Shown here piece after piece: positions 1,219 to 63,310 of a stretch of DNA of 64,000 nucleotides. The DNA is from Streptacidiphilus sp. 4-A2. GTDB taxonomy: Bacteria > Actinomycetota > Actinomycetes > Streptomycetales > Streptomycetaceae. Below the pieces are notes generated by a model that had not been told where the DNA came from, made no database searches, and was given only the letters and a program-made list of their open reading frames with translations. The position numbers and the translations under genes are program-made. Location: positions 5,084,001 through 5,148,000 of the forward strand of contig JAAFYY010000001.1 in NCBI GenBank assembly GCA_014284505.1, in the 5' to 3' direction. The stretch's first letter is position 1. Every line of letters begins with the position of its first letter.

Positions 1219-1709
1219 CCACCACCGTGCTGCTGCCCCGGCCGGTGCGGCCGCCCGCCCGGTCGGCCCGCTCACCGCCGGACGTCCGGGAAGCACCGGG
1301 CGCCCGGAAGCGCCGGGCGTCGCGAGGCGCGGGCCCGGTCCGGGGCCGGCTGCTGCCGCGGGTGCTGGTCGGGCTCGGGCTGGCGCTGCTGCCCTGGCTG
1401 GTGGTGCTCGCCACCACGCTGCCGACCACCGCGACCGCCTGCCACTGGTCACTGGCCTGGGTCGGCCTGGACTGTCTGGAGGCGCTCGGTCTGATCGGCA
1501 CCGGGGTGCTGCTGCGCCGCGGTGATCCGCGCCGCAGCCTGACCGCCGTGGCCACGGCCGTGCTGCTGGTCTGCGACGCCTGGTTCGACACCACCACCTC
1601 GACCCCCGGGCGCCGGCTTCGCTCGGCCCTGGCCATGGCCCTGCTGGTGGAGCTGCCCCTGGCCGGGCTCTGCCTGCGGCTGGCACTGCGCGCCCTGCCG
1701 CGCGGATAA
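1215..1709 (+). CDS. Small multi-pass membrane protein of unknown function
   Basis: A 164-residue protein beginning MTTTVLLPRP. After a basic, low-complexity N-terminal third it has about four membrane spans: LPRVLVGLGLALLPWLVVLATTL, a segment around WSLAWVGLDCLEALGLIGTGVLL, LTAVATAVLLVCDAWFD and ALAMALLVELPLAGLCLRLAL. The W-V-G-L-D-x-L-E-A motif and the R-R-G-D-P-R loop are, from memory, seen in a conserved Streptomyces membrane-protein family without known function. The start overlaps the preceding stop by an ATGA. It converges on glyS, with a strong hairpin between them. No catalytic motif is visible. Confidence 0.6.
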   Translation: MTTTVLLPRPVRPPARSARSPPDVREAPGARKRRASRGAGPVRGRLLPRVLVGLGLALLPWLVVLATTLPTTATACHWSLAWVGLDCLEALGLIGTGVLLRRGDPRRSLTAVATAVLLVCDAWFDTTTSTPGRRLRSALAMALLVELPLAGLCLRLALRALPRG

Positions 1710-1767
1710 CCGCCCGGGCGCGCCGCCGACAGGCAGGACACCGCCGGAGAAAGCCGCCGGAAAAACA

Positions 1768-1809
1768 CCGCCGCCCGGCGCGTCCTGTACGGGACGCGCC
1801 GGGCGGCGG
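1768..1809. terminator. Bidirectional hairpin terminator between convergent genes
   Basis: An 18-bp perfect GC-rich inverted repeat (arms 1768-1785 and 1792-1809) with a 6-base loop lies between the ends of the membrane-protein gene and glyS. No U-run follows, as is common for actinobacterial terminators. Confidence 0.75.
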
Positions 1810-1826
1810 CGTTGGCGTGGCGGGGT

Positions 1827-3210
1827 TCAGCAGCCCAGCAGCTTGCCGGCCAGGAAGCCCTCGACCTGGTCCAGCGAGATCCGCTGCTGCTCCATGGTGT
1901 CGCGCTCGCGCACGGTGACCGCGTTGTCGTCGAGCGTGTCGAAGTCGACGGTGATGCAGAACGGCGTGCCGATCTCGTCCTGGCGGCGGTAGCGGCGGCC
2001 GATCGCGCCGCGTCGTCGAACTCGACGTTCCAGTGCTTGCGCAGGTCCGCGGCCAGGCCGCGGGCCTTCGGCGACAGGGCGGCGTTGGGACAGCGGCAGC
2101 ACCGCGACCTTCACCGGGGCGAGCCGCGGGTCGAGCCGCATGACCACGCGCTTCTCCATCACGCCCTTGGCGTTGGGAGCCTCGTCCTCGCGGTAGGCGT
2201 CCAGCATGAAGGCCAGCATGGCGCGGTTGATGCCGGCCGCGGGCTCGATCACATACGGGAACCAGCGCTCGCCCGACTCCTGGTCGAAGTACTTGAGGTC
2301 CTGGCCGGAGTGCTCCGAGTGCTGGGTGAGGTCGTAGTCGGTGCGGTTGGCCACACCTTCGAGCTCACCGAACTCGTTGCCGCCGAACTGGAAGCGGTAC
2401 TCGATGTCGACCGTGCGCTTGGAGTAGTGCGACAGCTTCTCCTTGGCGTGCTCGTAGAAGCGCATGTTCTCCTCGCGCAGCCCGAGGTCGCGGTACCAGT
2501 TCCAGCGCTCCTGCAGCCAGTAGTCGAACCAGGTCTCGTCCTCGCCGGGCTTGACGAAGAACTCCATCTCCATCTGCTCGAACTCGCGGGTGCGGAAGAT
2601 GAAGTTGCCGGGCGTGATCTCGTTGCGGAAGCTCTTGCCGGTCTGGCGATGCCGAACGGCGGCTTCTTCCGCGAGGTCTGCTGCACCGCGGCAAAGTTGA
2701 CGAAGATGCCCTGGGCGGTCTCCGGGCGCAGGTAGGCCCGGCCGGCCGGGTCGCCCGCGTTGAAGGCGCCGAGGTGGGTTTCGAGCATCCCGGACATCGG
2801 CTTGGGCTCGGTGAAGCCGCCCTTGTTGCCGCAGTTGGGGCAGTTGATGTCGGCCAGGCCGTTGGCGGGAACGTGGCCGTGCTTGGCCTCGTACGCCTCC
2901 TCCAGGTGGTCGCGCGGTAGCGCTTGTGGCAGGAGGTGCACTCGGTCAGCGGGTCGCTGAAGGTGGCGACGTGGCCGCTGGCCTCCCACACCTCACGGGC
3001 CAGGATCACCGAGGAGTCGAGGCCGACGACGTCCTCACGGCCGATGACCATATTGCGCCACCACTGCCGCTTGATGTTCTCCTTGAGCTCGACACCCAGC
3101 GGACCGTAGTCCCAGGCGGCCTTCTGGCCGCCGTAGATCTCGCTGCAGGGATAAACGAAGCCACGGCGCTTGCTCAGGCTGACGATGGTGTCGATCTTGT
3201 CGGCGGCCAC
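1827..3210 (-). CDS. glyS: Glycyl-tRNA synthetase (homodimeric class II), with several indels
   Basis: Charges tRNA-Gly with glycine in the cytoplasm. Recognised from [20 protein letters not shown], the [20 protein letters not shown] motif, [10 protein letters not shown], the zinc-type cysteine pairs CTSCHKRY and INCPNCG, the class II segment [12 protein letters not shown], and the C-terminal [15 protein letters not shown] anticodon-binding region. The 1384-bp span restores to about 462 codons, the usual family length, after fixing indels near 2918, 2655, 2088 and 2013. The GTG at 3210 (VAADKID) matches family starts; an upstream ATG at 3255 is in frame and possible. Since the gene is essential and each break resumes in correct family sequence, I take the frameshifts as sequencing errors. 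It is transcribed away from zur. Confidence 0.9.
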
Positions 3211-3557
3211 AGTGCTCTCTTCAGTACGACGAATGCGGTCAGTGATGGATTTCATTGCACGCGGGACCCCGCGCCGACGCTGAGTCGGCGGCGGGACCGA
3301 ATAATTCAGGTTACCGGCCCTGGCCGCCGAGGCTTCAATTCGTTTCGGACGTGAACCCGACAGGAGCCCCGGACAGCAGCCCGGCGCGGTGCCCGGCCGG
3401 GCCCGTATTTGACAACGGTTTCCATTTCGCACACGATGGGAGTGCCCGGGACTGCGTCCGCGCCCGCGCCCGTCGCCCCCGCGGAAGCCTCCGGACTGGC
3501 ACAATGGCGGCCTAGACAGCCAGTCCGAAGCCCTTCGAGACCTTAGAGGAGATTCCG
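3211..3557. promoter_or_regulatory. Divergent glyS-zur intergenic region
   Basis: About 350 bases without a credible gene separate glyS (minus) from zur (plus). It holds a TTGACA-like -35 at 3409-3414 with CACGAT 17 bases later (3432-3437), overlapped by a Zur-like palindrome. From memory of Streptomyces coelicolor, zinc-uptake genes lie between glyS and zur; none is present here. Confidence 0.5.
3410..3424 (+). promoter_or_regulatory. Zur-box-like operator upstream of zur
   Basis: The 15-mer TGACAACGGTTTCCA is an imperfect 7-1-7 palindrome (5 of 7 positions paired) resembling the actinobacterial Zur box TGaaAACgaTTTTCA. It overlaps the putative -35 element, a position expected for repression. 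It precedes the zur gene by about 130 bases, suggesting autoregulation. The match is judged by eye. Confidence 0.5.
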
Positions 3558-3991
3558 GTGACGCCGCCCGCGAACCCGTCCTCCCCGCGCGGTCGACCAA
3601 ACAGCGCACCGCTGTCGCCTCGCTGCTGGCGGAGGTGGACGACTTCCGCAGTGCCCAGGAGCTGCACGACCTGCTCAAGCACCGTGGCGACTCGGTCGGC
3701 CTGACCACCGTCTACCGCACCCTCCAGTCGCTCGCCGACGCCGGCGAGATCGACGTGCTGCGCACCGACGAGGGCGAGGCGGTCTACCGGCGGTGCAGCA
3801 GCGGGCACCACCACCACCTGGTGTGCCGCCGCTGCGGGCGCACGGTGGAGGTGGAGGGCCCGGCGGTGGAGCGCTGGGCCGAGGGCATCGCCAGCGAGCA
3901 CGGCTTCGTGGACATCGCGCACACCCTGGAGATCTTCGGCACCTGCGCCGACTGCGCGGCGCAGGCGGCGGAGCAGGAGCAGCTGCCCTGA
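3558..3991 (+). CDS. zur: Zinc uptake regulator Zur (Fur family)
   Basis: A DNA-binding repressor that uses zinc as co-repressor. The winged-helix region reads [53 protein letters not shown]. The metal-binding region reads [26 protein letters not shown], with C-x2-C at VCRRCG and a second C-x2-C at GTCADC forming the structural zinc site, plus the H-H-H-H sensory cluster. The GTG start at 3558 follows AGAGGAG at a good distance. One base is missing just after the start, so the first ~25 codons lie in another frame; the restored length is about 144 residues, normal for Zur. A Zur-like site lies upstream. No adjacent znuABC is present. It converges on uppS. Confidence 0.88.
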
Positions 3992-4021
3992 CGCCCGCGC
4001 GCGGCGGCGAGGGTGTGCCCC

Positions 4022-4042
4022 GCGGATCCCTGCCGGATCCGC
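4022..4042. terminator. Hairpin between convergent zur and uppS
   Basis: An 8-bp perfect inverted repeat (GCGGATCC / GGATCCGC, 5-base loop) in the 85-base gap between the zur stop and the uppS stop. It is immediately followed by imperfect 12-bp repeats that run into the uppS 3-prime end. Confidence 0.55.
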
Positions 4043-4076
4043 AGGTCACGCCTTGGAGCACCAGCTGGTGGACCAG

Positions 4077-4914
4077 CTAGTGGACCAGCTGCTCCGGCAC
4101 GGTCGGGTCATTGGGCTGCGCCCCGCCGTAGCGGCGGTCCCGGGAGGCGTACTGCTCGCAGGCGCGCCACAGGTCGCGGCGGTCGAAGTCGGGCCACAGC
4201 ACGTCCTGGAACACCAGCTCCGCGTAGGCCGACTGCCAGAGCAGGAAGTTCGAGGTCGCTGCTCGCCACTGGGGCGACGAACAGGTCCACGTCGGGCATG
4301 TCCCGGTGGTACATGTACTTGGCCAGGGTCTTCTCGTTGACCTTCTTCGGGTCGAGCCGGCCGGCCGCGACATCGGCCGCGAGCGCCGCCGCGGCGTCCG
4401 CGATCTCGGCCCGGCCGCCGTAGTTGACGCACATGTACAGCGTCATCGCGTCGTTGTCGCGGGTCAGCTCCTCGGCCACCTGGAGCTCCTGGACCACGCT
4501 CTTCCACAGCCTGGGCATCCGCCCGGCCCAGCGGATCCGGATGCCCATCTCGTGCATCTCGTCCCGGCGGCGGTGGATGACGTCGCGGTTGAAGTTCATC
4601 AGGAAGCGCACCTCGTCGGGCGAGCGCTTCCAGTTCTCGGTGGAGAAGGCGTACAGGGAGAGGTTCTTCACCCCGAGTTCCAGGCAGCCCTTGAGGACGT
4701 CCAGGACCACACCCTCGCCGACCTTGTGGCCCTCGGTGCGCGGCAGACCGCGCTCCTTGGCCCAGCGGCCGTTGCCGTCCATCACGATCGCCACATGCTG
4801 GGGAACCAGCTCGGCCGGGATCGCGGGCGGACGCGCGCCGCTGGGGTGAAGGGACGGCGGCAGGTACTCCCGCTGCTTGGCGCCCCCGAACAGTCCACGT
4901 CGTGCAGTTGCCAT
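4077..4914 (-). CDS. uppS: Isoprenyl (undecaprenyl-type) diphosphate synthase
   Basis: A cis-prenyltransferase that extends allylic diphosphates with isopentenyl diphosphate to make the polyprenyl lipid carrier for cell-wall synthesis. The signature [20 protein letters not shown] (catalytic Asp in MDGNGRW) is near residue 40, followed by [21 protein letters not shown] and VNYGGRAEI. The C-terminal dimer/substrate region reads [23 protein letters not shown]. The start ATG at 4914 (MATARRGLF) is followed by an uninterrupted frame to about 4280. An indel cluster at 4265-4285, inside the D-L-F-V-R-S-S-G-E-Q-R-x-S-N-F motif, then shifts frame. The corrected length of ~279 residues fits the family. 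It lies downstream of recO on the same strand, probably in one operon. Confidence 0.92.
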
Positions 4915-4981
4915 GAGCCTTCAGTTCTCCACTCGGTCCACTCGGCCGGCCCGCGCCGGCCCGAGGTGCGTCGCCCGCCCG

Positions 4982-5727
4982 CTAACGGTCCACGTACTTC
5001 AGCGAGCGCAGGCCCCGCTCCAGGTGCCACTGGACGTACGCCGCGACCAGGCCGCTGCCCTCACGGCAGTGGCGCGGCTCACAGGCGTCCGCCGACTCCC
5101 AGTCGCCGGAGAGCAGTGCTCCCAGCAACTCCATCGTCTCAGGGAGGGTACGACACTGCCGGGTACCCGGCAGTCGTGGCAGAGTACCCCGCCGGTCTGC
5201 ACCGAGAAGAAACGGTTGGGACCGGGCAGCCCGCACTTGGCGCAGTCGTCGAAGCTGGGCGCGTAGCCGTTGACCGACAGCGACCGCAGCAGGAAGGCGT
5301 CCAGTACCAGCGGCGGCGCGTGTCCCCCGGCCGCGAGCGTCCGCAGCGCGCCGACCAGCAGCAGGTACTGCTGGACCGCGGGCTCGCCCTCGTTCTCGGT
5401 GAAGCGCTCGGCGGTCTCCAGCATCGCGGTGCCCGCGGTGTAGCCGGCGTAGTCGGCCACTATCCGGGCGCCGAACGGGGCGATCGTCTCGACCTGGGTG
5501 CACAGCGCCAGATGGCGGCTGACCAGTTCCTCGCCCCGGGAGAAGAACTGCACGTCGACATGGGAGAACGGCTCCAGCCGCGCGCCGAACTTGGACTTGG
5601 TGCGGCGTACCCCGCGGGCGACGGCACGGACCCGTCCGTGCTGGCGGGTGAGCAGGGTGATGATGCGGTCCGCCTCACCCAGCTTCTGGGTGCGCAGCAC
5701 CACAGCGTCGTCGCGGAAGAGGGCCAT
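4982..5727 (-). CDS. recO: DNA repair protein RecO
   Basis: A recombination mediator that, with RecR, loads RecA onto SSB-coated gaps. The N-terminal OB-fold reads [42 protein letters not shown]. The middle helical part carries the C-x2-C...C-x2-C zinc motif (FDDCAKCG ... GVLCHDC). One indel near 5150-5165 moves the last ~55 residues ([16 protein letters not shown]...LRSLKYVDR) into another frame. The restored length of ~248 residues is typical. The ATG at 5727 is the only good start. It sits between a TerB-like gene and uppS, an order I recall as standard in Streptomyces. Confidence 0.9.
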
Positions 5728-5789
5728 GCCGCCATTGTCGCGCACCGCGCGGGGCAGCGGGGACATCGGGGCAGCGGGGACAGCAGGGC

Positions 5790-6452
5790 CTAGGAGTGCG
5801 GCTGGCGGGTGGCCGCGGTCAGGGTCGCGTCGATCCGGGCGGCGGAGAGCCCCATGCAGCTGCCGGCCGTGCGCAGCATCTCCCGCTCGGCGGGGCGGTA
5901 GGAGCCGTCGGCCAGCGCGATGCAGGCGCCCTGGAGCAGCAGGTGCTCCAGCCCGGGCACGGACAGGTGCGGCACCAGCGGCTCCAGCGCGGTGTGCAGT
6001 TCCACGGCCAGGCCGCTGCCGCAGCCGTACAGCCCGGAGAGCTCCTGGTCGCCCTCGCGCAGGGCCGCCAGCGCGGCCAGCACCTCCGTCTCGTCCAGGG
6101 CATACCCGGCCTCGCGCAGCACCGAGACCGCGGCGTCGCGGGTGGCCCGGCCGCCGGTGCCGCCGGCCGCCAGCACCGCGAGCACGATGGTGTACTGCGC
6201 GGTGCGCAGCATGGACAGCAGATTCCCGGAGGTCGGCCGCTCCAGCGCGTCCAGGCCGTAGCGGGCGGAGCAGGAGGTGCACTGGAGGGAGCTCCCGGCG
6301 TCGCCCAGTGGCAGCAGCGGCAGTGCCAGCAGCCGCAGCCATCGTCGTCCGCGCTGCCTGCGGTAGTTGCGGTCGCCGCCGCAGCCCGGGCAGAAGAACT
6401 CGCCCAGCACGTCGGTGCGCCATCGGGCGCTGACACCCACCAACTGCGTCAT
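5790..6452 (-). CDS. TerB-family protein with N-terminal zinc ribbon
   Basis: An intact 220-residue protein. The first ~75 residues carry two Cys pairs ([13 protein letters not shown] and [11 protein letters not shown]) forming a probable zinc ribbon around a hydrophobic stretch ([12 protein letters not shown]). The rest is an all-helical TerB-like domain with repeated acidic patches ([38 protein letters not shown]). TerB domains bind metal and occur in tellurite and stress modules. The family is recognised, but a specific function is unknown and tellurite resistance should not be assumed. It lies just upstream of recO on the same strand and may be co-transcribed. Confidence 0.75.
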
Positions 6453-6579
6453 GGCGCGACTCCCCTGCCTGCCACACCGACCCCGCTGCCGGTTGTCCCG
6501 ATGCTGTCACGACCTTGACGCCCTGTCAGTACCCCGAGCGGCCAGCGGGTCCGGAAATTGTGGCGGAAAACACACTGGC

Positions 6580-6599
6580 CCCCCGCTGAACAGCGGGGA
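6580..6599 (-). terminator. Hairpin downstream of leuA
   Basis: An 8-bp inverted repeat (CCCCGCTG / CAGCGGGG) about 45 bases beyond the leuA stop, in the gap before the TerB-like gene. It is probably the leuA terminator; no U-run is seen. Confidence 0.5.
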
Positions 6600-6644
6600 G
6601 CCGGTGCGGGGCCGAATCGGGGCCGGAAGGATGAACTGCGGGTG

Positions 6645-8549
<1,905 letters not shown>

Positions 8550-8568
<19 letters not shown>

Positions 8569-8597
8569 CAGCTAAGAAGAAGCAGCCCGATGCGCAT
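8550..8597 (-). CDS. leuL: leuA leader peptide (15 residues, four consecutive Leu)
   Basis: The ORF encodes MRIGLLLLSCRGEGL, with four adjacent Leu codons (CTG CTT CTT CTT) including the less common CTT, ending in TAG 117 bases before leuA. An AGGGTG lies ~8 bases before the ATG. A run of Leu codons followed by a stem whose first arm overlaps the leader is the hallmark of ribosome-mediated attenuation. Such leaders are known for Streptomyces leuA. Confidence 0.78.
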
Positions 8598-8735
8598 GAT
8601 GGAGTTCACCCTAACCCAGGGCCGATCGCGACCACAGCTCAAACCCCGGTTTGTTCCACCTGTCGAGACGGTACGGACACGGACCACTCCTTTCGGTGAC
8701 TGACAGGGCATGTGATCTCTGACACTTTGGGCGAT

Positions 8736-9870
8736 ATGACCGTACATCTCCCCGGAGTATCGTCCGTTTTCTGCGGAATCATTCCGCCGCATCTGCTGGA
8801 GCACCTTGCCCACGATGTGGACGCCGCAGTCCGCGAGGCCGCCCGACGCACCCTCACCCACGATGCCCTGCACCGGCAGCAGCGCGCCGGGCGCCGTACC
8901 GCCGTACCCGCGCCCGCGGCCCGGCCGCGCCCCGGAGCCGACCGCGCGCCGCACCGTCCACGACGGCCACCACCAGCACACCCTGCCCGGCCCGGTGGTC
9001 CGCACCGAGGGCTCCGCCCCGGTCGCCGACCAGGCCGTGGACCACGCCTACGACGGCCTCGGCGACACCTTCGCCTTCTACCTCGACGCCTACGGCCGCC
9101 GCTCGGTCGACGGCCGGGGCCTGCCGCTGGACGCCACCGTCCACTACGGCGTGCACTACGACAACGCCTTCTGGAACGGGCGGCAGATGGTCTTCGGCGA
9201 CGGCGACGGCACGCTCTTCCAGGACTTCACCGGGTGCGTCGAGATCATCGGGCACGAGCTCACCCACGGCGTCACCCAGTACAGCGCGAACCTCGACTAC
9301 CAGGGCCAGTCCGGGGCGCTCAACGAGTCGGTCTCCGACGTCTTCGGCTCCCTGGTCAAGCAGTACGCCCTGGGCCAGACCGCCGACCGGGCGGACTGGC
9401 TGATCGGCGCCGGGCTGCTGGCGCCCGGCGTGCAGGGGGTGGCCCTGCGCTCGCTGAAGGCCCCGGGCACCGCCTACCACGACGCCCGGCTCGGCACCGA
9501 CCCCCAGCCCGCGACCATGGCCGGCTACCTGGACACCGAGGCCGACAACGGCGGGGTGCACCTCAACTCCGGCATCCCCAACCACGCCTTCTACCTCGCC
9601 GCCGAAGCCCTCGGCGGCCACGCCTGGGAGCGCGCCGGGCAGATCTGGTACGACGTGCTCACCGGCGGCCGGCTCCCCTCCGACGCCGACTTCGCGGCCT
9701 TCGCCACCGCCACCGCCGACGCCGCCCGGGCCCGCTACGGCCCGGGCGCGGAACTGCGGGCGGTACAGGCGGCCTGGACCACCGTCGGAGTGGGCGCCGG
9801 AGTGGGCGCGGAATCGACGGCCGGGACTTCGGACGCGACAAGAATTAACGCGCCCCTGCGGCCCGCATAG
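8736..9870 (+). CDS. M4-family (thermolysin/protealysin-like) metalloprotease
   Basis: A zinc endopeptidase. The short N-terminal propeptide reads SSVFCGIIPPHLLEHLAHD, the P-P-x-x-L motif typical of protealysin-type precursors rather than long thermolysin propeptides; no classical signal peptide is visible. The catalytic domain has HELTH (zinc ligands plus catalytic Glu), GALNESVSDVFG (third zinc ligand), and GVHLNSGIPNHAFY with the catalytic His. One indel lies between ~8880 and 8940, separating propeptide and catalytic frames; the restored length is ~378 residues. The ATG at 8736 begins MTVHLPG. An emfourin-like inhibitor gene follows after 48 bases. It is divergent from leuA. Protealysins can be cytoplasmic or exported without a signal peptide, so location is uncertain. 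Confidence 0.9.
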
Positions 9871-53656: not shown

Positions 53657-53762
53657 CACCTCTGTTCCGACGCGGTGCCCGGGTCGGTTCAGGGGAACCT
53701 CAGGGTCACCCCGAGCCCCGAACCCGACCCGAACCCGACGCCGGCCAGTCACGTCAGTCGGT

Positions 53763-56629
53763 TCAGCCCGTGACGATGTTGACCAGCTTCGGCGCCCGGA
53801 CGATCACCTTGCGCACCTGGGCGCCGTCGATCGCCGCGACCACGTTCGGGGCGGCCAGCGCCAGCGTCTCCAGCTCGGCGTCGGAGATCGCCGGGGGGAC
53901 CTCCAGCCGGGCCTTGACCTTGCCCTTGACCTGCACGACGCAGGTCACGGTGTCGTCCACCAGGTAGGCCGGGTCGGCCACCGGCAGCGGCTGTGCACCA
54001 GTGAGGTGTCGTGGCCCAGCCGGGACCACAGCTCCTCGGCGATGTGCGGGGCCAGCGGCGCGACCAGCAGCACCGTCTGCTCGGCCACCACCCGGGGCGT
54101 GCTGCCCGCTTGACCAGGTGGTTGTTCAGCTCGGTGGCCTTGGCGACGGCCGTGTTGAAGCGCAGTCCGGCCATGTCCTTGCGGACGCCGTCGATGGTCT
54201 TGTTCAGGATCCGCAGCGTGGCCTCGTCCGGCTCCTCGTCGGTGACGACGACCGCGCCGGTCTCCTCGTCGACGACGTTGCGCCACAGCCGCTGCAGGAA
54301 GCGGTAGGAGCCGACGACGGCGCGGTGTCCCAGGGACGGAGACGTCCAGCGGGCCCATCGCCATCTCGTACAGGCGCAGGGTGTCCACGCTGTACTCACC
54401 GGTGACCTCCTCCGGGGCGACCACGTTCTTCAGCGACTTGCCGATCTTGCCGACCTCCCGGCTGACCTGCTCGCCCTGGTAGTACCAGGCGCCGTCGCGC
54501 TCCTCGACCTCGGCCGCCGGGACCGGGAAGCCGCGCTGGTCGCGGTAGACCTGGCCCTGGATCATGCCCTGGTTGAACAGCTTGTGGAACGGCTCGCCGG
54601 AGCTGACATGGCCCAGGTCGAACAGCACCTTGTGCCAGAACCGCGCGTACAGCAGGTGCAGCACCGCGTGCTCGGCGCCACCGACGTACAGGTCGACGCC
54701 GCCGGCCGGCTTGGCCGCGTCCGGGCCCATCCAGTAGCGCTCGTTGACCGGGTCGACCACGGCCTCGCTGTTGTCGGGGTCGACGTAGCGCAGCTCGTAC
54801 CAGCAGGAACCGGCCCAGTTGGGCATGGTGTTGGTCTCACGCCGGTAGGTCCGCACGCCGTCGCCGCGGCCCAGGTCCAGCTCGACGGTGACCCAGTCCT
54901 CGCGGCGGACAGCGGGGTCTCCGGGGAGGTGTCGGCGTCGTCCGGGTCGAAGGTGCGCGGCGAGTAGTCGTCGATCTCGGGCAGCTCGACCGGCAGCATG
55001 GACTCGGGCAGCGGGTGCGCGACGCCGTCCTCGTCGTAGACGATCGGGAAGGGCTCGCCCCAGTAGCGCTGGCGGCTGAACAGCCAGTCGCGCAGCTTGA
55101 AGGTGACCGTGCCCTCGCCGATGCCGCGGGCGGCCAGCCATTCACTGATGGCCTTCTTGGCGTCGGCGACGCCCAGGCCGTCCAGCGAGATCTCGGCGTT
55201 GGCGGAGTTGACGATCACCGCGTCGTAGGAGACGAAGGCGCTGTCCAGCCGTCGGTGTCGGTGTCGCGGCCGTCGGTCGGCTGCACCACGCAGCGGATCG
55301 GCAGCCGGAAGGCGCGGGCGAACTCGAAGTCGCGGACGTCGTGCGCCGGGACGGCCATGATCGCGCCGGTCCCGTAGCCCGCCAGCACGTAGTCGGCGAT
55401 GAACACCGGGACCTGCTCGCCGCCGGCCGGGTTGGTCGCGTACGCGCCGGTGAACACGCCGGTCTTGGCGCGGCCCTCGCTCTGCCGCTCCACCTCCGAC
55501 TTGGCGGCGGCCTGCTTGCGGTACGCGGCCACGGCCTCGCCGGGGGTGGCGTGGCCGCCGGTCCACTCGGCGGGCAGGTCCTCGCTCGGCCAGGCGTCCG
55601 GGACGACGGTGTCGACCAGGTCGTGCTCGGGGGCCAGCACCATGTAGGTCGAGCCGAACAGGGTGTCCGGGCGGGTGGTGAACACCGTGACCGCGGAGCC
55701 CGGGTGGCCGACCACCGCGAAGTCGACCTTGGCGCCCTCGGAGCGGCCGATCCAGTTGCGCTGCTGCAGCTTGATGGCGTCCGGCCAGTCCAGCAGGTCC
55801 AGGTCGTCGATCAGGCGGTCACTGTAGGCGGTGATCCGCATCATCCACTGGCGCAGATTGGACTTGAAGACCGGGAAGTTGCCGCGCTCGGAGCGGCCGT
55901 CGGCGGTGACCTCCTCGTTGGCCAGCACCGTGCCCAGGCCGGGGCACCAGTTGACCGGGGCCTTCTTGATGTACGCCAGCCGGTAGTCGCTCAGCAGTTC
56001 GTCGCGCTCGGCGGGGCTCAGCTCGGCCCAGGGGCGGCCGTCGGCGGTGGGCTGCTCGCCGCGCTCGAAGCGGGCGACCAGTTCGCCGATCGGACGGGCC
56101 TGGCCGGCCTCGGGGTCGTACCAGGAGTTGAAGATCTGCAGGAAGATCCACTGCGTCCAGCGGTAGTACGCCGGGTCGATGGTGGTGACCGAGCGGCGCT
56201 GGTCGTGACCCAGGCCCAGGCTGCGCAGCTGGCGGCGGAACTCGACGATGTTCGCCTCGGTGGTCACCCGGGGGTGGGTGCCGGTCTGCACGGCGTACTG
56301 CTCGGCCGGCAGCCCGAAGGCGTCGAAGCCCATGGTGTGCAGCACATTGTGGCCGGTCATCCGCATGTAGCGGGCGTAGACGTCAGTGGCGATGTACCCC
56401 AGCGGGTGCCCGACGTGCAGGCCGCTGCCCGAGGGATAGGGGAACATGTCCATGATGAAGGCGTGCGGCTTGCCGGTGACGTCCGTGCCGTCGGCCAGCG
56501 TCCCGCGCGGGTTGGGGGCGTCGAACGCGCCCTCGCGCTCCCAGCGGTCCTGCCATTCGCTCTCGATCCGCGCCGCCAGCGCGGGGTGTAGCGGTACGCC
56601 TCGGGCGCCTCGGGTGTGGTCTCGCTCAT
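53763..56629 (-). CDS. leuS: Leucyl-tRNA synthetase, with several indels
   Basis: Class I synthetase charging tRNA-Leu. HIGH-type motif [32 protein letters not shown], the editing domain ([38 protein letters not shown]), [38 protein letters not shown], the KMSKS-equivalent [10 protein letters not shown], the anticodon domain and a C-terminal [44 protein letters not shown]. Breaks near 56585, 55245, 54915, 54335, 54110 and 53990; corrected length ~956 residues. ATG 56629 (MSETTPEAP). A Leu-rich leader ORF and a strong terminator lie in its 5-prime leader. Confidence 0.94.
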
Positions 56630-56760
56630 CGTCCTCAAACTCCATCAAGGGGTTCGGGCGGGCCGTACCGGGCCCGTCCACCAGCAGAACCGTTCCGTGC
56701 GGCCCCGGCCCGGTCGCCTACCGGGGGCCCGGGCCGAAGCCGTCTCCCTGCGAAACTGCG

Positions 56761-56793
56761 AAAGAAAACAGAAAAACCCCTCGCAGGAGGGGT
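56761..56793 (-). terminator. Intrinsic terminator (attenuator) in the leuS leader
   Basis: Stem ACCCCTC / GAGGGGT with a 4-base loop (56776-56793), followed on the transcribed strand by TTTTTCTGTTTTCTTT. This is a canonical U-tract terminator, rare in this window, 130 bases before leuS. Confidence 0.85.
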
Positions 56794-56839
56794 CGCCACG
56801 CTGACTCCGGCCACACCGCCTCGGGCGGGCCGGTCCTTG

Positions 56840-56878
56840 TCAGCGCGGCCGGATAAGGAGCAGACGCGCGGTTCGCAT
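56840..56878 (-). CDS. leuS leader peptide (12 residues, three consecutive Leu)
   Basis: The ORF MRTARLLLIRPR ends in TGA 47 bases before the terminator stem. Three adjacent Leu codons (CTG CTC CTT) in so short an ORF, followed by an intrinsic terminator and then leuS, fit ribosome-mediated attenuation by charged tRNA-Leu. The ribosome binding site is weak, so translation is inferred. Confidence 0.65.
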   Translation of the reverse strand: MRTARLLLIRPR

Positions 56879-56949
56879 GGCCACAGGTTACCGCAGCGCC
56901 TGCCACCGGTGAACGTCCGCTGTGGCCGGACGGCCGGGCCGCCGCGGGG

Positions 56950-57801
56950 TCAGCCGAGGGGCGTGGCGGTGAAGTCCCGGAACCAGAGCTCCGAGTTGTC
57001 CACCCGCAGGCCGACCCCGCCGGGCTTGCTGAGCGCGCCCGGCGCGTGGTCCACCACCGAGAGCGCGGTGCTGCCGTTGATCTCCAGGGACAGCTGGACC
57101 GTCCCCGAGGGGCCGTCGACCGCGCTCGCCGAGACCTGCTGCCAGCTCCCGTAGGGGATCGGGCAGGAGGCCTGGGCCAGGGTGGCGTAGTCGCCGCCGT
57201 CCACCGCCGCCGAGTCGTGGGCGGTGACCTTGCGCTTGATCACCACCATGCCGTCGCGGCGGCGGAAGCTGAGCGCGTACAGCTCCGAGGGGCTGTGGTA
57301 GCGCAGCCAGAAGTGCGCACCGTCCCACTCGGAGGCCGGGGTGCGCTTGGTGGTGATCGGCTGGTCCACCTTGACCGAGCTGCTGACCCGGACCGAGCCG
57401 AAGTCGCGGCGGCGGGTGACCAGGCGGAACACCGCCGAGTCGTTGTACCGGGCGGAGTCGGTGCCGGTCTCGCCGGAGGTCGGGGACCCCGGTCCAGCCG
57501 CAGCCGTCCTGGGCGAAGAGCGAGCCGCTGGTGACGATCCAGTCCGCGGAGTCGTGCGCCTGCGGGCTGCTGGGCTCCCGGTAGGCGTACTCGTTGGTGA
57601 CCAGCCCGCTGCCGGGGAAGCTCGCCGTGAACGGCTGCACGCTGTCCCCCGAGCCCTGAGAACCACCGGAGCCGCCGGAGCCACCGGAGCCGCCGGAGCC
57701 ACCGAGGCCGCCGAACTCCAGCGCCGCGCCGACGCCGACCGCCGCGGCCCCGCCACCAGCCCGCCGATCAGGGCGCGCCGCGAGGGCGTGCCCCGGCTCA
57801 T
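56950..57801 (-). CDS. Tat-exported concanavalin/laminin-G-like lectin protein
   Basis: MSRGTPSRRALIGGLVAGG is a twin-arginine-like signal (S-R-R-A-L-I). After frame repair a (G-G-S)n linker of about six repeats follows, then a beta-sandwich: ADWIVTSGSLFAQDG-GWTGVPTSGETGTDSARYNDSAVFRLVTRRRDFGSVRVSSSVKVDQPITTKRTPASEWDGAHFWLRYHSPSELYALSFRRRDGMVVIKRKV and GSWQQVSASAVDGPSGTVQLSLEINGSTALSVVDHAPGALSKPGGVGLRVDNSELWFRDFTATPL. This layout resembles carbohydrate-binding concanavalin-like folds. Breaks near 57750 and 57490. Its ATG overlaps the deacetylase stop (ATGA), so it belongs to the polysaccharide operon and may bind or tether the product. Confidence 0.75.
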   Translation of the reverse strand: MSRGTPSRRALIGGLVAGPRRSASARRWSSAASVAPAAPVAPAAPVVLRARGTACSRSRRASPAAGWSPTSTPTGSPAARRRTTPRTGSSPAARSSPRTAAAGPGSPTSGETGTDSARYNDSAVFRLVTRRRDFGSVRVSSSVKVDQPITTKRTPASEWDGAHFWLRYHSPSELYALSFRRRDGMVVIKRKVTAHDSAAVDGGDYATLAQASCPIPYGSWQQVSASAVDGPSGTVQLSLEINGSTALSVVDHAPGALSKPGGVGLRVDNSELWFRDFTATPLG

Positions 57802-59909
57802 GACGCCGTCCCGGTCACCTTGAAGCCGGTAATCGTCGGCCAGGTGCGCCGGGTCAGGTCCCGGTACGCCGAGAAGCCGACGCCGCCGGTCTCGTTCTTG
57901 GCCAGCAGGGTCATCCGCACTGTTCCGTCCACGGACACCAGTGTCGCGGTGGGGGTCACCGTGACCGACACCAGGTGGGTGCCGGCGGCGGTGAGCGCAC
58001 GGGCGCCAACCAGCTGCTGGTTGTCGGCGTCGCCGGAGAAGACCTCAAGCTGGTCCCGGTAGATCTGGACGCTGATCGCCAGCGGGCTGCCGACGCGCAC
58101 CCACACCGCCCCGCTGACCGCGGTGTTGCTGAGCCGGGAGACCGTGCCGCTGACCGTGTAGTCGGTCCAGGCGGCGGTGCGCTCGGGCTGGTAGGCGCCG
58201 TAGACGGAGAGGCTGCCCGAAGACTGCGGCTCCAGTTCCTGCGAGGTGATCCGGAACGGCGCGGTCAGGCCGGGCGCGACCTCCAGCGGGCGTTGGGTCG
58301 AGCAGGACGGCCTCCGACACCGGCAGGGCGTCCGGGCCGCCGGGACGCACCGCGGGGGCCGCCTCGGAGACGCTCACCTTGTCGAACACCGGCCAGGCCA
58401 CGCCGGGGCGGTTGATCCCGACCCGGATGCCGAACCCGCCGGTGAGCTGGGTCGGGCTGGTGACCTTGGAGGTCCAGCTGAGCACCGCGGTGCCGTCCAC
58501 CCGGGCGGTGGTGACCGGGCCCTGCACGGTCACCTCGACCGTGTGCCGGGAGACGTCGGCGATCTTCTTCTCGGCCAGCTTGATGTTGTCCCGGGAGATC
58601 GACAGCGTGCCGCGGCTGATGCCGACCACGATGGGCTCCGCGCTGTCGTCGCGGACCGAGATGGACGCCTGGTTGGTGCCGTCCGACAGCCCGGAGACGG
58701 TGGCGTCGACCTGGTAGTCGTCCCAGTCGAGGCTGCTCATCTGGCGGAAGTCGGCGGCCGCGTAGTGCGCCCGGCCTGGTACGGGCCCTTGCCGGTGAAC
58801 GGGCCGAGCCGCCCTGCTTGGAGCCGTCGTACGGTCCACTGTGTGGCTCGGACAGCGGGTCGAGTCCTCGGAGCGACCTGGGTCCACTGCGCCAGCTCGG
58901 AGCAGCATCGAGGGTGTGCTCTTCAGCACCTCAAGACGCTGCACTTCTGCATGGTGCCGGCCCGGCGGCTGGCGGTCAGCGCCGGGAGGAGACGTCGGTC
59001 AGCGTGGCCACGAAGTACTTGGCCATGATGTCGGATGTGGGCCGGGCTTGGCAGGTTGGCCTTGGTCCGACTCCGAGTAAGGGTAGGCGAAAGAACAGCG
59101 CCGGGCAGGCCGTGGCCCTCCATGGTGGAGATGGACTTGTCGATGTCCGCCTCCACCCGGGACTGGTACTGCCGTAGGTCTCCAGCCGTGCTGGGTCGGC
59201 AGCCAAGCCGGTTGGCCAGCGCCGAGCCCTGGTCACCCTGCGCGTCGATGGCGGTCCGGTAGTGCAGGTCGTAGTGTGGTCCTGGAAGTCCCAGCGGCCA
59301 GAGGCGGCCATCCGGCTGATCTCGTTCCAGGTCAGTAGTAGGGGCGGTCGTGGTCCACCCCGCTCCGAGATCAGGAACGAGCGCCGTGCATGTGTACTTG
59401 GCGAGGATCTTGTCCCCGTAGACCCACAGCCGTTGGTGCCGTCGTCGAAGGTGATGTAGACCGACCGCGGCGGGCCGGCCGCGCGCAGGTAGTCGGCAAC
59501 TCCTGGCTGGTCAGGCCGGTAGCCGGCCCGCCTGGAGGCCGCCATCTGGCCGCGAAGGTGGTCGGGCTGACCACGTACTCGCTGGTGTTGGTCGGCTGAT
59601 GTCGTGGTAGGTCAGCACGATCGGCGCGGTGGTCGCGGGCAGCGCCTCACCGAGCCGGACCAGCCGCGGTCTGGTCCGCGTCCAGCTGGACCACGGTGCC
59701 GGGGGCTGCGGGGTCATGTACTTCTGGTACTCGTTACTCGGCCGCGCGTAGAAGGGCATGGCCAGGATCGCCAGGGCGAGCGCCAGCAGGCCGAGCCGCG
59801 CGTCCAGTGGCCGCGGCGCGCGCCCTTGGCGTGCCGCGCGCCGGGCGGCGCGGATCTCCGGCGGCAGCGAGGCCGACCCGCCCGGCTGCGCGCCGGGGGG
59901 GGTGGTCAC
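57798..59909 (-). CDS. Membrane-anchored polysaccharide N-deacetylase with C-terminal beta-sandwich modules
   Basis: N-terminal anchor RLGLLALALAILAMPFYARP. CE4-type domain after frame repair: APIVLTYHDISRPT, TTFAAQMAALQAGGYR, VYITFDDGTNG (metal/catalytic Asp pair) and WDFQDHTYDLHYRT, whose His residues are five apart as in PgaB/IcaB rather than the usual H-x3-H. C-terminal half: two jelly-roll-like modules (DWDDYQVDATVSGLSDGTNQASISVRDDSAEPIVVGISRG...KVSVSEAAP; VGSPLAISVQIYRDQLEVFSGDADNQQ...FKVTGTAS). More than ten indels between 58740 and 59720; size ~700 residues. GTG 59909 (VTTPPGAQPGG) has GAGGGAG upstream. Expected to remove N-acetyl groups from an exported aminosugar polymer outside the membrane. 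Confidence 0.8.
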
Positions 59910-59967
59910 GGAAGGATGCTCCCTCTGCTGCACGATGGCGTAGATGCCGCAGACGACGCGATGGAGA

Positions 59968-61495
59968 TCAGGCGGCGATCAGCCGCCCCACAGCACGCAG
60001 GGCCTTCATCACGTCGCTCCTGGACAGACACCGCGCCGGATGGTCGCGAAGGAGTACGGCAGCAGCCAGGCCAGCAGCAGCGACGAGAGCAGGCTCATCA
60101 GCGGCCGTAGCGCCAGCGGTGTCACCGGGGTTGTCGATCTTGAATGCCAGTCCCCACACGCACCCTTGAGGACCACGCCGCAGAGGTAGAGCAGGGTGAG
60201 GAAGGCGGCTCCGTTGGCGGGCCCCAGACGATGTGCCGGAAGGCCATGATCGGGCGGCCACCACCCACAGCGCGTGCCCGTAGTAGAGCAGGCCGGGCCG
60301 AGGCCGCGGCGCCACATGAAGGAGCCGGTGAAAAACAGTTCCGGATGAAGCTCTTCTTCCAGCGGATCTGCTGCTTCAGAGGGCCGGAAGCGGGCCGGGA
60401 CTTGGTCCACACCTTGGCGGACTGGACGTAGCCGATCCGCCACTTGCGCTCAGGTAGTCGCGCTCGGTGACGAACGGCGAGTCGCGTACTTCTGCTTGAG
60501 GCCTTGCCGCGCCACTTCTGCCCCAGCACATAGCCGGTCAGCTGCGGTCGGTGGCAAAGCGGAAGGGGGCGCCCATGAAGCGGTCACCGGCCAGGCCGGG
60601 AGGTAGTTGTAGATGGCGTCGCGCGGAACACCGCCAGCGGCCGGATACGCAGGTGACCGAGCCGAAGGTGGACTCGGCCGCCTTGGCCACCCGAACTGCC
60701 CCTCGTACCAGACGTCCTGCATCTTGTGGAACATGGTGTCGGCGGCGTTCAGCGCCGGGCGTGGCCGCTGACCGCGCCCAGCTCCGGGTGCGCGACCAGG
60801 GCCTCGACACAGCGGGCCAGGGCGTCCGGGCCAGGATGCAGTCGGAGTCGGAGAAGGCGATGACCTCGCCGTCGGCGATCTCGCACGCCTTGACCAGGCG
60901 TGCTTCTTGCCCAGGTTCTTCTCCAGTAGATCACGGTGATGCCGAGCTCGGCCTCCAGCCGCGCAGCACCTCGACCGTGCCGTCCTCGGACTGGTCGTCG
61001 ACCACGATCACGTCGAGGTTCGGTAGTCGCAGAGGATCATCGAGCGGACGCATTCCTCGATGACGTCGACCTCGTCCTTGACGCCAGCAGGAAGCTCACC
61101 TTGGGCGTGGCCGAGGACAGCGGGGAAGCTGCCCAGGTCGGCGGGCGCTTGCGCAGGGTCCGCTCGGACGGGTCGTCATAGCGGCTGTAGGCGATGAACA
61201 GCATGGAATGGTGCCGACCAGCACGGTGAAGCCGTAGCCGAGACCAGCGGGCTCTGCTCCAGCCTGGGCGCCTCGCGGCCAGGATCAGCAGCAACGCAGC
61301 AGGCACAGCAGGGTGAGCACCCGGCGGGTGGCATGCCGCACCGAGGGATGCATCCGGTCCAGCAGCCGGCGCATCGGCCCGGGGCGGAACGCGGCGTCGG
61401 CCGAGCGCAGCGGCGGAGCGGCGGCGCGGGCCGGAACGCCGGAGCCGCTGCGCAGGGTCGCGGTCGCGGTGGCGGCCGTGGCGTGCTCCGCTCAC
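59968..61495 (-). CDS. Processive family-2 glycosyltransferase (polysaccharide synthase)
   Basis: Membrane-embedded synthase of the hyaluronan/chitin/PNAG type. After frame repair: YRTS-type nucleotide site, GEVIAFSDSDCILAPDALARCVEALVAHPELGAVSGHAR (D-x-D), KMQDVWYEGQFGVAKAAESTFGSVTCVSGPLAVFRRDAI, GDRFMGAPFRFATDRQLTGYVLGQKW, and the processivity motif KQQIRWKKSFIRN (Q-x-x-R-W). C-terminal helices (LYYGHALWVVAAPIMAF; AAFLTLLYLCGVVLKGCVWGLAF; LMSLLSSLLLAWLLPYSF). More than ten indels. GTG 61495 overlaps the upstream stop (GTGA), assuming one missing base; an internal ATG at 61374 is the alternative. Gap to the deacetylase is 58 bases. Confidence 0.83.
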
Positions 61496-63148
61496 CGGCC
61501 GCGGGCCAGCGGTCCCACTCGCCCCAGGCCGCCTGCGGCTGCGCCGGGACGGTGGGCGGATGGGGCTGGTACGCTCCTCGACTGTAGGTCGCGGATGACT
61601 GTACGACTGTCTGATGGGTACTGCTGGCCTGACTGGTACGGCTGATATGGCTGGTCCGAATGGTACGGCGCGCCGGCTGGTGGTTCCCGCCGACTGTACG
61701 AGTCGTCGGACTTAGGCTGGCCGTACTGCGGTTCGGAACCGTAGGCTGTCGTCACAGGATCGCCTTCGCCGGACGAGTCGAGCCGGTAGGTGGCGTCCAG
61801 CACGATGCCCGGCTGTCGCTCCCAGACCGGTGAGCCAGTCCAGGTCGCGCCGGTGGACGGTGTGCACCAGCACCAGGTCCCAGTTCCCGTACTGCGGGCG
61901 GACTCACTGACGAGCACCTCCGCGCCGATCCGGACCGCGGGCACCAGCGGGTCGGTGAAGTGCACCTTGGCGCCGTCCTCCCGGAGTTCCTCCAGGATCT
62001 CCAGCGCGGGCGACTCGCGCAGGTCCGCGACACCGGGCTTGTAGGCGACGCCCACCAGCAGCCCGCGCGCCGGAGATGCTGAGACCGCGTCGGCGAGCAG
62101 CTCACGTACCCGGCGGACCACCTGGCGCGGACGCCCGGCGATGGCGGTCATCGCGGCGTCGATCAGCGGCGAGGATATCCGCTTGGCCGCAGCTGCCAGA
62201 GCAGGTAGTGCGCGGTCGCAGGGTATGCAGTGGCCGCCGACGCCGGGCCGGGGTAGAAGGGCATGAAGCCGTAGGGCTTGGTTGCCGCGGCCTCGATGAT
62301 CGGCGCCGGGTCCAGCCCCAGTCCGCGGCAGTTCTCGGCGAACTCGTTGGCCAGCGCGATGTTGACGGCCCGGAAGGTGTTCTCCAGAGCTTGGTCATCT
62401 CCGCCTCCTCCGGGGAGGCAGCACATGCACCGAGGGCGGTGCGGCGCAGTACGGCGGCGGCCAGCTCGTGGAGCGGGCTCCCGTGCCGCCGACCACCCTG
62501 GGCGTGCTCTCCTGGGTGTGCCGGGCGTTGGGGTCGATCCGCTCCGGGGAGAAGGCGACATGGATGTCGGTCCCGGCCACCAGGCCGCGCTCGGCCAGCG
62601 GCCGAACCAGCAGGTCACCGGTGGTGCCGACATAGGTGGTGGAGGTGAGCACCAGCAGTTGGCCGGGACGGCATGAGCGACGACGGAGGCACAGGCCGCC
62701 GCCATCGCCCGGAGGTCGGGCACCTGGTGCCGGTCGACCGGGGTCGGGACGCAGATCAGCACGGTGGCGGCCCCGGCGACCCGGGCCGGGTCCGAGGTAA
62801 GAACGAAGCTGCCGCCCTCACCCCCGGCCGCACCCGCCGCTTCGGCGTCGGCGTCGGCACCGGCTTCGGCACCGGCTTCGGCAAGGCTGGTGGCCAGGCG
62901 CTCGTGGTCGCTCGGGAGCAGGTCGACGTCGCGGCGGCGGATCGCGTCCAGCCGGCCTCGCTGACGTCGAGCCCGATGACCCGGTTGCCCGCCGCGAGCA
63001 GGGCGAGGGCGGTGGGCAGGCCCACATAACCGAGCCCGACCACGGCAACCGTCGCGGCTGCGTGCTCCTCCGCCCCGACCTGCGGGTAGGAGTCAGGCCC
63101 TGGTGATGAGCCGTCGGCCACGAGCTCCATGGGCACAGGGAATCGCAT
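61492..63148 (-). CDS. UDP-glucose/UDP-N-acetylhexosamine 6-dehydrogenase with Tyr/Gln/Pro-rich tail
   Basis: Oxidises a nucleotide sugar at C6 to the uronic acid with NAD. Rossmann start ATVAVVGLGYVGLPTALALLAAGNRVIGLDVS, TVLICVPTPVDRHQVPDLRAM, LVLTSTTYVGTTGDLLVRPL, VAFSPERIDPNARHTQESTPRVVGG, LLENTFRAVNIALANEFAENCRGLGLD, the catalytic Cys in GVGGHCIPCD (about 62210-62235), then the C-terminal VAYKPGVADLRESPALEILEEL. A ~70-residue tail (GSEPQYGQPKSDD..., DQPYQPYQSGQQYPSD) is unusual. Breaks near 62960, 62660, 62480, 62390, 62240, 62190, 61910. Start 63148 tentative. First gene of the polysaccharide operon. Whether it acts on UDP-Glc or UDP-ManNAc/GlcNAc cannot be decided by eye. Confidence 0.85.
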
Positions 63149-63310
63149 ATGCACTCCGCAGACGGTCGACGTGGCGTGGTGGCTGGCCGGCCGCATGCGG
63201 GGACCCCGCTGCCCTGCCCTGACTTTGACGGAAGCTCGGCCGTCACTCAGTCGATGCTCAGCGTGGTAAGGCTCGCGTGAGAGGTATGTGGAAGTCAAGT
63301 GAAGATCGAA

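What the first reader, a model, noticed from the sequence alone, without database searches (positions are those of the whole stretch)
56950..63148. Four-gene exopolysaccharide operon combining a uronic-acid sugar enzyme, processive synthase, PgaB-like deacetylase and a secreted lectin
Gene order on the minus strand is UDP-sugar 6-dehydrogenase, family-2 synthase with Q-x-x-R-W, membrane-anchored N-deacetylase, Tat-type beta-sandwich protein. Three junctions are tight (GTGA overlap, 58-base gap, ATGA overlap). Known Streptomyces PNAG loci (matAB), as I recall them, fuse deacetylase and synthase and have no dehydrogenase. Hyaluronan loci have a dehydrogenase and synthase but no deacetylase. This combination implies a new heteropolymer with uronic acid and de-N-acetylated aminosugar, with its own binding protein. 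The product is inference; domain motifs and layout are seen.
Basis: partly seen in the sequence, partly recalled or inferred. Interest (0 to 1): 0.82.

Follow-up and report, generated by a model that had tools for sequence, protein, structure and literature searches.

The report
Five-gene actinobacterial amino-uronic polysaccharide operon
A conserved set of genes in Streptomyces-like soil bacteria appears to make, partly deacetylate and bind an undescribed acidic amino-sugar polymer on the cell surface, and it includes a tiny membrane protein gene hidden in a gap.

Summary
The four genes are real and in the stated order, and they are not pseudogenes. The window comes from an error-rich assembly: even the neighbouring leuS is split. 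The region recurs at the same place in 3 of 13 congeners. The unit dehydrogenase - processive GT2 - deacetylase, often with a secreted concanavalin/CBM66-like protein, recurs with other flanks in Kitasatospora, Actinacidiphila and Streptomyces.

Three corrections. (1) The dehydrogenase is not UDP-glucose dehydrogenase-like. It groups with WbpA-like (UDP-GlcNAc 6-dehydrogenase type) enzymes, so the likely acidic sugar is GlcNAcA rather than GlcA, and hyaluronan is a weaker analogue. (2) The "gap" between synthase and deacetylase is a fifth gene: a 34-46 residue, single-span membrane peptide, usually overlapping both neighbours, present in 19 of 22 distinct loci examined. (3) The deacetylase usually carries one or two lectin-like domains of its own.

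Best reading: a synthase-dependent exopolysaccharide operon making a partly de-N-acetylated polymer of GlcNAc and/or GlcNAcA. The polymer itself is inferred. Three related loci (L069, L096, L097) lack an adjacent dehydrogenase, so the acidic sugar is not proven. My literature searches, in open-licence PMC only, found no description of this locus. New variant of a known kind.

The parts
61752..63148 (-). Nucleotide-sugar 6-dehydrogenase, WbpA-like (UDP-HexNAc type); frame broken in this assembly
   Evidence: Intact homologue in G009 is 456 aa, TIGR03026 364.5 bits; tree and active-site signature GPGVGGHCIPCDPHYL; window pieces; GTGA end
60009..61755 (-). Processive family-2 glycosyltransferase (NodC/hyaluronan synthase class) with a Pro/Gln/Tyr-rich N-terminal tail; frame broken in this assembly
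   Evidence: G009 homologue: Pfam PF00535 94.8 bits, NodC 125.5 and PgaC 113.9 bits, both below their cut-offs; PDB best hyaluronan synthase; invariant catalytic residues; window match with stops inside
59906..60009 (-). Fifth gene, not in the finding: 35-residue (in G009) single-membrane-span peptide; frame broken in this assembly
   Evidence: ATG overlaps the GT stop and TGA overlaps the deacetylase GTG; in 19 of 22 distinct loci examined, L096 having the frame without a standard start; hydrophobic 19-residue stretch
57798..59909 (-). Membrane-anchored CE4 (PgaB/IcaB-type) de-N-acetylase with two C-terminal laminin-G/CBM66-like domains; frame broken in this assembly
56950..57801 (-). Twin-arginine concanavalin-A-like/CBM66-like protein, presumably exported

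Best explanation
A synthase-dependent exopolysaccharide operon. The dehydrogenase oxidises UDP-GlcNAc to UDP-GlcNAcA (inferred from family placement). The membrane GT2 polymerises it, alone or alternating with UDP-GlcNAc, and extrudes the chain through its own membrane part (as in hyaluronan and chitin synthases; inferred). The 35-residue single-span peptide, translationally coupled to the synthase, is an accessory subunit, in the role that IcaD/PgaD plays beside PNAG synthases (inferred; no homology claimed). On the outside the anchored PgaB-like enzyme removes N-acetyl groups while its laminin-G-like domains hold the chain. The twin-arginine CBM66-like protein binds the finished, mixed-charge polymer at the hyphal surface. 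Shown: genes, order, overlaps, domains, catalytic residues, co-conservation. Not shown: sugars, linkage, polymer, export, phenotype.
For: Order and 4-nt overlaps are conserved across loci with differing flanks. In 101 family genomes the GT is in 9, the deacetylase in 8 and the lectin-like protein in 7, nested sets; hypergeometric 2e-9 for lectin with GT, ignoring shared ancestry. Dehydrogenase: UDP-ManNAc (WecC-type) models 184-193 bits, TviB 140, TuaD 107; the tree groups it with WbpA-like enzymes (99/97), away from WecC/Cap5O and UGDH; its best plasmid relative lies beside a Gfo/Idh/MocA oxidoreductase and an aminotransferase, as expected of a WbpA beside WbpB and WbpE (Wbp pathway from passages of PMC10622841). 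A Paenibacillus plasmid carries deacetylase - HexNAc-type dehydrogenase - GT2 - deacetylase - GH18. A distant actinobacterial genome (G119) has the GT beside deacetylases and repeated lectin-like domains. The peptide is in 19 of 22 distinct loci.
Against: L069 (MAG) and L096 (G043) have GT and peptide frame but no adjacent dehydrogenase, and G043's best dehydrogenase elsewhere is only 42% identical. G119 (L097) has none on the GT's contig, though two homologues lie elsewhere, and no peptide. L096's deacetylase is only weakly similar (26% over 125 residues) and no lectin-like gene was found there. The closest PDB chains to the dehydrogenase are a UDP-ManNAc-type enzyme, Cap5O (UDP-ManNAc enzyme, recalled) and CalS8 (TDP/UDP-glucose enzyme, recalled), so the substrate is not certain. 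WbpA itself was not in the tree, and the cluster clade's join to its nearest relatives is weak (85/57). Peptide dN is below dS in 37 of 45 pairs, equal in 1 and above in 7. A lectin-like fold shows no ligand; polyuronate lyases share the jelly roll.
Confidence: 0.55

Rival explanations
1. Hyaluronan-like polymer: the dehydrogenase makes UDP-GlcA and the GT2 alternates GlcA and GlcNAc, followed by de-N-acetylation.
For: GT best PDB match is hyaluronan synthase; a dehydrogenase-synthase pair is the hyaluronan layout (recalled).
Against: Dehydrogenase scores and active-site signature are of HexNAc type: UDP-glucose dehydrogenase chains 1dli/1dlj (streptococcal, recalled) 36-41 bits against 161 for a UDP-ManNAc-type dehydrogenase; tree.
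Confidence: 0.13
2. Neutral poly-GlcNAc (chitin- or PNAG-like) that is de-N-acetylated, with the dehydrogenase serving another glycan and co-transcribed only by history.
For: L069, L096 and L097 have GT plus a deacetylase without an adjacent dehydrogenase; GT resembles NodC/PgaC; deacetylase resembles PgaB/IcaB.
Against: 4-nt overlap of dehydrogenase and GT in 14 of 15 loci measured; an independent Paenibacillus locus pairs the same three functions.
Confidence: 0.2
3. Copolymer with ManNAcA: the dehydrogenase acts on UDP-ManNAc, as WecC does.
For: Highest-scoring named NCBIfam models and the top PDB chain are UDP-ManNAc-type dehydrogenases.
Against: Tree puts WecC/Cap5O in a separate clade; no epimerase among the eight proteins, seven of them flanking or neighbouring genes or synthase/deacetylase of L069, that were scanned (a small part of the flanks); recalled WbpA-type signature.
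Confidence: 0.1
4. About one part only: the fourth protein is a lyase or hydrolase that trims the polymer rather than a lectin.
For: Jelly-roll polyuronate lyases (alginate, ulvan, glucuronan) are among the Foldseek matches; many invariant Arg, Tyr, Lys and one His residue.
Confidence: 0.2
5. About this strain only: a degenerate pseudogene cluster.
For: Frameshifting gaps are denser in dehydrogenase, GT and deacetylase (10-22 per kb) than in leuS or the lectin-like gene (2.3-2.4 per kb).
Against: Most are one-base deletions (9 of 14, 28 of 30 in the GT core, 24 of 35); substitutions keep the codon-position pattern of working genes; leuS is broken too; congeners are intact.
Confidence: 0.05

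Closest known systems
Streptomyces matAB (PNAG)
   Same: GT2 synthase plus carbohydrate-esterase deacetylase making a surface polysaccharide in Streptomyces; a second gene (matA) of unclear function (passages of PMC5972031)
   Different: MatB is bifunctional (deacetylase and synthase in one protein); no dehydrogenase and no CBM66-like protein are named in the passages seen; here the GT scores nearer NodC than PgaC
icaADBC / pgaABCD (PNAG)
   Same: Synthase, small membrane accessory protein (IcaD/PgaD, recalled) and a PgaB/IcaB-type deacetylase; the accessory is here only 34-46 aa
   Different: No dehydrogenase in those loci (recalled); the deacetylase carries laminin-G/CBM66-like domains where PgaB has a C-terminal hydrolase domain (recalled; also the title and abstract start of PMC5933820 in the listing); equivalog cut-offs not reached
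Hyaluronan loci (hasA-hasB, recalled)
   Same: Dehydrogenase next to a processive GT2 of the hyaluronan synthase class
   Different: Dehydrogenase of a different clade; deacetylase, peptide and lectin-like protein added
Wbp pathway (WbpA)
   Same: Dehydrogenase clade and its active-site signature (recalled for WbpA)
   Different: No WbpB/E/D/I partners recognised here, and a synthase-dependent, not O-antigen, setting
Paenibacillus cellulositrophicus plasmid locus NZ_CP045296 (L074)
   Same: Deacetylase, HexNAc-type dehydrogenase, GT2 and deacetylase in one strand run
   Different: GH18 gene in place of the lectin-like gene; no peptide found; GT about 30% and dehydrogenase about 36% identical

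Membership tests
Synthase-dependent exopolysaccharide system | Processive GT2 with D, DxD and QxxRW and flanking membrane spans | tested here: met
   Invariant residues in 6 aligned synthases; Pfam and PDB matches. Membrane spans judged by eye from hydrophobic stretches; no predictor was run
Synthase-dependent exopolysaccharide system | Secreted polymer made by the locus | not testable with these tools
   Needs chemistry
PNAG (pga/ica/mat) system | GT passes the PgaC/IcaA equivalog cut-off | tested here: not met
   113.9 bits against 422.3
PNAG (pga/ica/mat) system | Deacetylase passes the PgaB or IcaB equivalog cut-off | tested here: not met
   93.7 against 321.9 and 56.8 against 248.35
Nod factor synthase NodC | GT passes the NodC equivalog cut-off | tested here: not met
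   125.5 bits against 550
UDP-glucose 6-dehydrogenase | Groups with UGDH and has the GGSC active-site form | tested here: not met
   GGHC and a separate clade; TuaD 107 bits against cut-off 700
WecC-type UDP-ManNAc dehydrogenase | Passes the WecC or archaeal equivalog cut-off | tested here: not met
   184.2 against 459 and 192.9 against 750
WbpA-type UDP-GlcNAc 6-dehydrogenase | Groups with WbpA-like enzymes | tested here: inconclusive
   Grouped at 99/97 with enzymes including one beside wbpB/wbpE-like genes; WbpA itself was not in the tree
WbpA-type UDP-GlcNAc 6-dehydrogenase | Activity on UDP-GlcNAc | not testable with these tools
   -
CE4 polysaccharide deacetylase | Metal and catalytic motifs, fold | tested here: met
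CBM66-like carbohydrate-binding protein | Jelly-roll fold | tested here: met
CBM66-like carbohydrate-binding protein | Binds a glycan | not testable with these tools
   -

The most novel reading that the evidence does not exclude
These operons make a hitherto unknown amino-uronic polymer: a carboxylated chitin or chitosan in which GlcNAcA (alone or alternating with GlcNAc) is polymerised by one GT2 synthase that works with a 35-residue single-span subunit, then de-N-acetylated to a mixed-charge chain held by dedicated CBM66-like proteins.
Probability: 0.35. Interest if true: 0.78.

Novelty: new variant of a known kind. Interest (0 to 1): 0.56.

Why it matters
It would add a polymer class to the Streptomyces surface beside PNAG (MatAB) and the CslA glycan, which control pellet formation (passages of PMC5972031). 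It also offers a natural enzymatic route to carboxylated chitosan, and a very small candidate subunit for a processive synthase, directly testable by deletion.

Tried and rejected
Rejected: pseudogene reading; dolichol-phosphate-type GT (28 bits to 5mlz against 66 to hyaluronan synthase); a non-coding spacer between GT and deacetylase (the alignment shows a reading frame; no RNA fold was computed). Led nowhere: megablast of the GT in plasmids (no match); lectin-like protein in plasmids (no match); deacetylase in plasmids (only the catalytic part, 29% or less in the rows listed); viral contigs (two loci, 28% over 110 residues, not followed); Actinoplanes paper (abstract and passages of PMC13390465: other clusters); Frankia nod paper (passages of PMC4447401: nodABC-type). 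Literature searches listed no paper that I could recognise as describing this locus; that covers open-licence PMC only, and apart from the papers named as passages I saw listings with abstract starts only. The promoter scan was not run. I did not test whether mat or csl genes are also in this genome. Rows left out: the dehydrogenase tree holds 14 of the 17 distinct relatives' cluster enzymes at hand (L051 and L068, split in two frames, and L063, cut by its contig end, were left out); A1 holds 6 of the synthases at hand.

Full report
WHERE IT IS. The window is G000:C4:5084001-5148000 in a 9.05 Mb, 4-contig genome with completeness 76.5%. On the minus strand, after a peptidase gene (S8 family in Pfam) and before leuS, the finding's genes are present only as fragments. 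Of 13 congeners in the set, three (G009, G013, G003) hold the region at 81-85% DNA identity, with the same flanks, and their genes are open except for one frameshift in the G013 synthase.

NOT PSEUDOGENES. Against G009, the window's frameshifting gaps number 14 in the dehydrogenase, 38 in the GT, 35 in the deacetylase, 3 in the small gene, 2 in the beta-sandwich gene and 7 in leuS. Most are one-base deletions (9 of 14 in the dehydrogenase, 28 of 30 in the GT core, 24 of 35 in the deacetylase, 7 of 7 in leuS). Substitution frequencies by codon position in the GT core are 2.3/2.1/15.8%, the pattern of working genes and close to that of the congeners. A split leuS and 76.5% completeness point to consensus errors. 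The uneven density (GT about nine times leuS) remains unexplained; local read depth is a guess.

THE UNIT. With the GT alignment, 14 named loci were found (only two peptide patterns were used, so this is a lower bound). tblastn shows GT and deacetylase in 14 of 14. The dehydrogenase is in 12: 11 over most of its length (L068's is split in two frames) and L063 cut by its contig end. L057's contig starts at the GT, and L069 has none on its contig. The lectin-like gene is in 8 of 14, seven after the deacetylase and one (L068) between dehydrogenase and GT. Among the six without it, L062-L065 and L070 have deacetylases with a single lectin-like domain and L069's has none; L068 too has a single one, as does L053, which has the separate gene as well. 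S. mangrovisoli holds one locus with and one without the lectin-like gene. In 101 family genomes (three searches that I take to have drawn the same set) the GT is in 9, the deacetylase (E <= 1e-15) in 8 and the lectin-like protein in 7, nested sets. In 149 genomes of the phylum the GT passes E 1e-50 in 2, the window's own and G119.

THE DEHYDROGENASE. TIGR03026 is passed. Among named subtypes the UDP-ManNAc models score best, then TviB, then UDP-glucose models; none reaches its own cut-off. PDB order is a UDP-ManNAcA-type dehydrogenase 161 bits, Cap5O 152, CalS8 145, an NDP-GalNAcA-type enzyme 110, then UDP-glucose dehydrogenases from 104 down to 35. In a tree of 29 sequences the 14 cluster enzymes form one clade (100/100) inside a group of 22 (99/97). 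Apart from the Paenibacillus enzyme, the group shares a KPxG...PGPGxGGHC(I/L)PxDP-like signature. It includes an Azospirillum gene beside Gfo/Idh/MocA and aminotransferase genes, the arrangement expected of the Wbp pathway, in which WbpA turns UDP-GlcNAc into UDP-GlcNAcA (passages of PMC10622841). WecC/Cap5O and UGDH fall outside. The tree has long branches, the clade's nearest join is weak (85/57) and WbpA is absent from it; that this signature belongs to WbpA is recalled. In eight GT-bearing genomes the other dehydrogenases found at E <= 1e-20 are at most 45% identical.

THE SYNTHASE. NodC 125.5 and PgaC 113.9 bits, far below equivalog cut-offs; best PDB match hyaluronan synthase; plasmid matches listed are chiefly NodC, the highest score being a Paenibacillus GT. 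The five other rows of the alignment are 74-93% identical to the first; the most distant cluster synthases are about 64%.

THE FIFTH GENE. The spacing from GT stop to deacetylase start is about 100 nt in most loci. Aligning it shows a reading frame: a 34-46 residue peptide with a basic N-terminus, one hydrophobic span (peak 19-residue hydropathy 1.55-2.81), an invariant Tyr and, in 18 of the 19, (S/T)RG near the C-terminus (TGG in L069). Of 23 rows examined (L052 and L064 are the same genome, so 22 distinct loci), 20 rows, or 19 distinct loci, have it. In 18 of the 19 it overlaps the GT stop by 1 or 4 nt; L070's start lies 16 nt downstream. L096 has the frame without an ATG, GTG or TTG start, a CTG overlapping the GT stop being the candidate. 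L097 (G119) and L074 (Paenibacillus) have none. Among 45 pairs at 60% or more identity dN is below dS in 37, equal in 1 and above in 7, so selection evidence is moderate; conservation of frame, position and overlaps is the stronger argument. The window copy is at 60009-59906.

DEACETYLASE AND LECTIN-LIKE PROTEIN. The deacetylase has an N-terminal membrane helix, a CE4 domain with invariant TFDDG and H-x4-H (14 of 14) and, in 13 of those 14, one or two laminin-G/CBM66-like domains (model mean pLDDT 74.9). The fourth protein has invariant RR (8 of 8; the surroundings look Tat-like by eye in most, less so in L066 and L067) and a CBM66-like jelly roll. Its family is related to a 282-residue protein encoded near the G119 GT (hhalign probability 94, E 1.3e-7), and similar stretches, by eye, recur in the large proteins next to it.

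WHAT SPEAKS AGAINST. Loci L069 and L096 lack an adjacent dehydrogenase, and G043 (L096) has only a 42% relative elsewhere; G119 has none on the GT's contig but two homologues elsewhere. So the synthase family can exist without it. The polymer could be neutral in those, or in all.

VERDICT. The operon and its coherence as a surface-polysaccharide unit are well supported. Identity of the acidic sugar (GlcNAcA favoured) and the polymer are inference. It fails the cut-offs of the PNAG and NodC families and the UGDH placement, so it is filed as a new variant of synthase-dependent exopolysaccharide systems.

Noticed in passing
L074 (NZ_CP045296.1, Paenibacillus cellulositrophicus plasmid), 1442-9108: Deacetylase, HexNAc-type dehydrogenase (not in the listed annotation), GT2, deacetylase and GH18 in one run: a possible Firmicute counterpart.
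   Followed up: partly
L085/L097 (G119 contig 85), 1-12000: GT and deacetylase next to large proteins with repeated lectin-like stretches, PKD-like repeats (by eye) and a second deacetylase-like region.
   Followed up: partly
L069, 2613-3518: A GGDEF (diguanylate cyclase) gene directly upstream of the GT in an uncultured actinobacterium; may hint at c-di-GMP control.
   Followed up: no
L058 and L062: Streptomyces mangrovisoli carries two versions of the locus, one with and one without the lectin-like gene.
   Followed up: no
window 59800-63150 against 53700-57800: Small deletions are several times denser in the dehydrogenase-GT-deacetylase stretch than in leuS or the lectin-like gene; cause unknown.
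   Followed up: partly
L011/L055, synthase near L055:8290: The G013 genome has one frameshift in the synthase gene; error or mutation not resolved.
   Followed up: no
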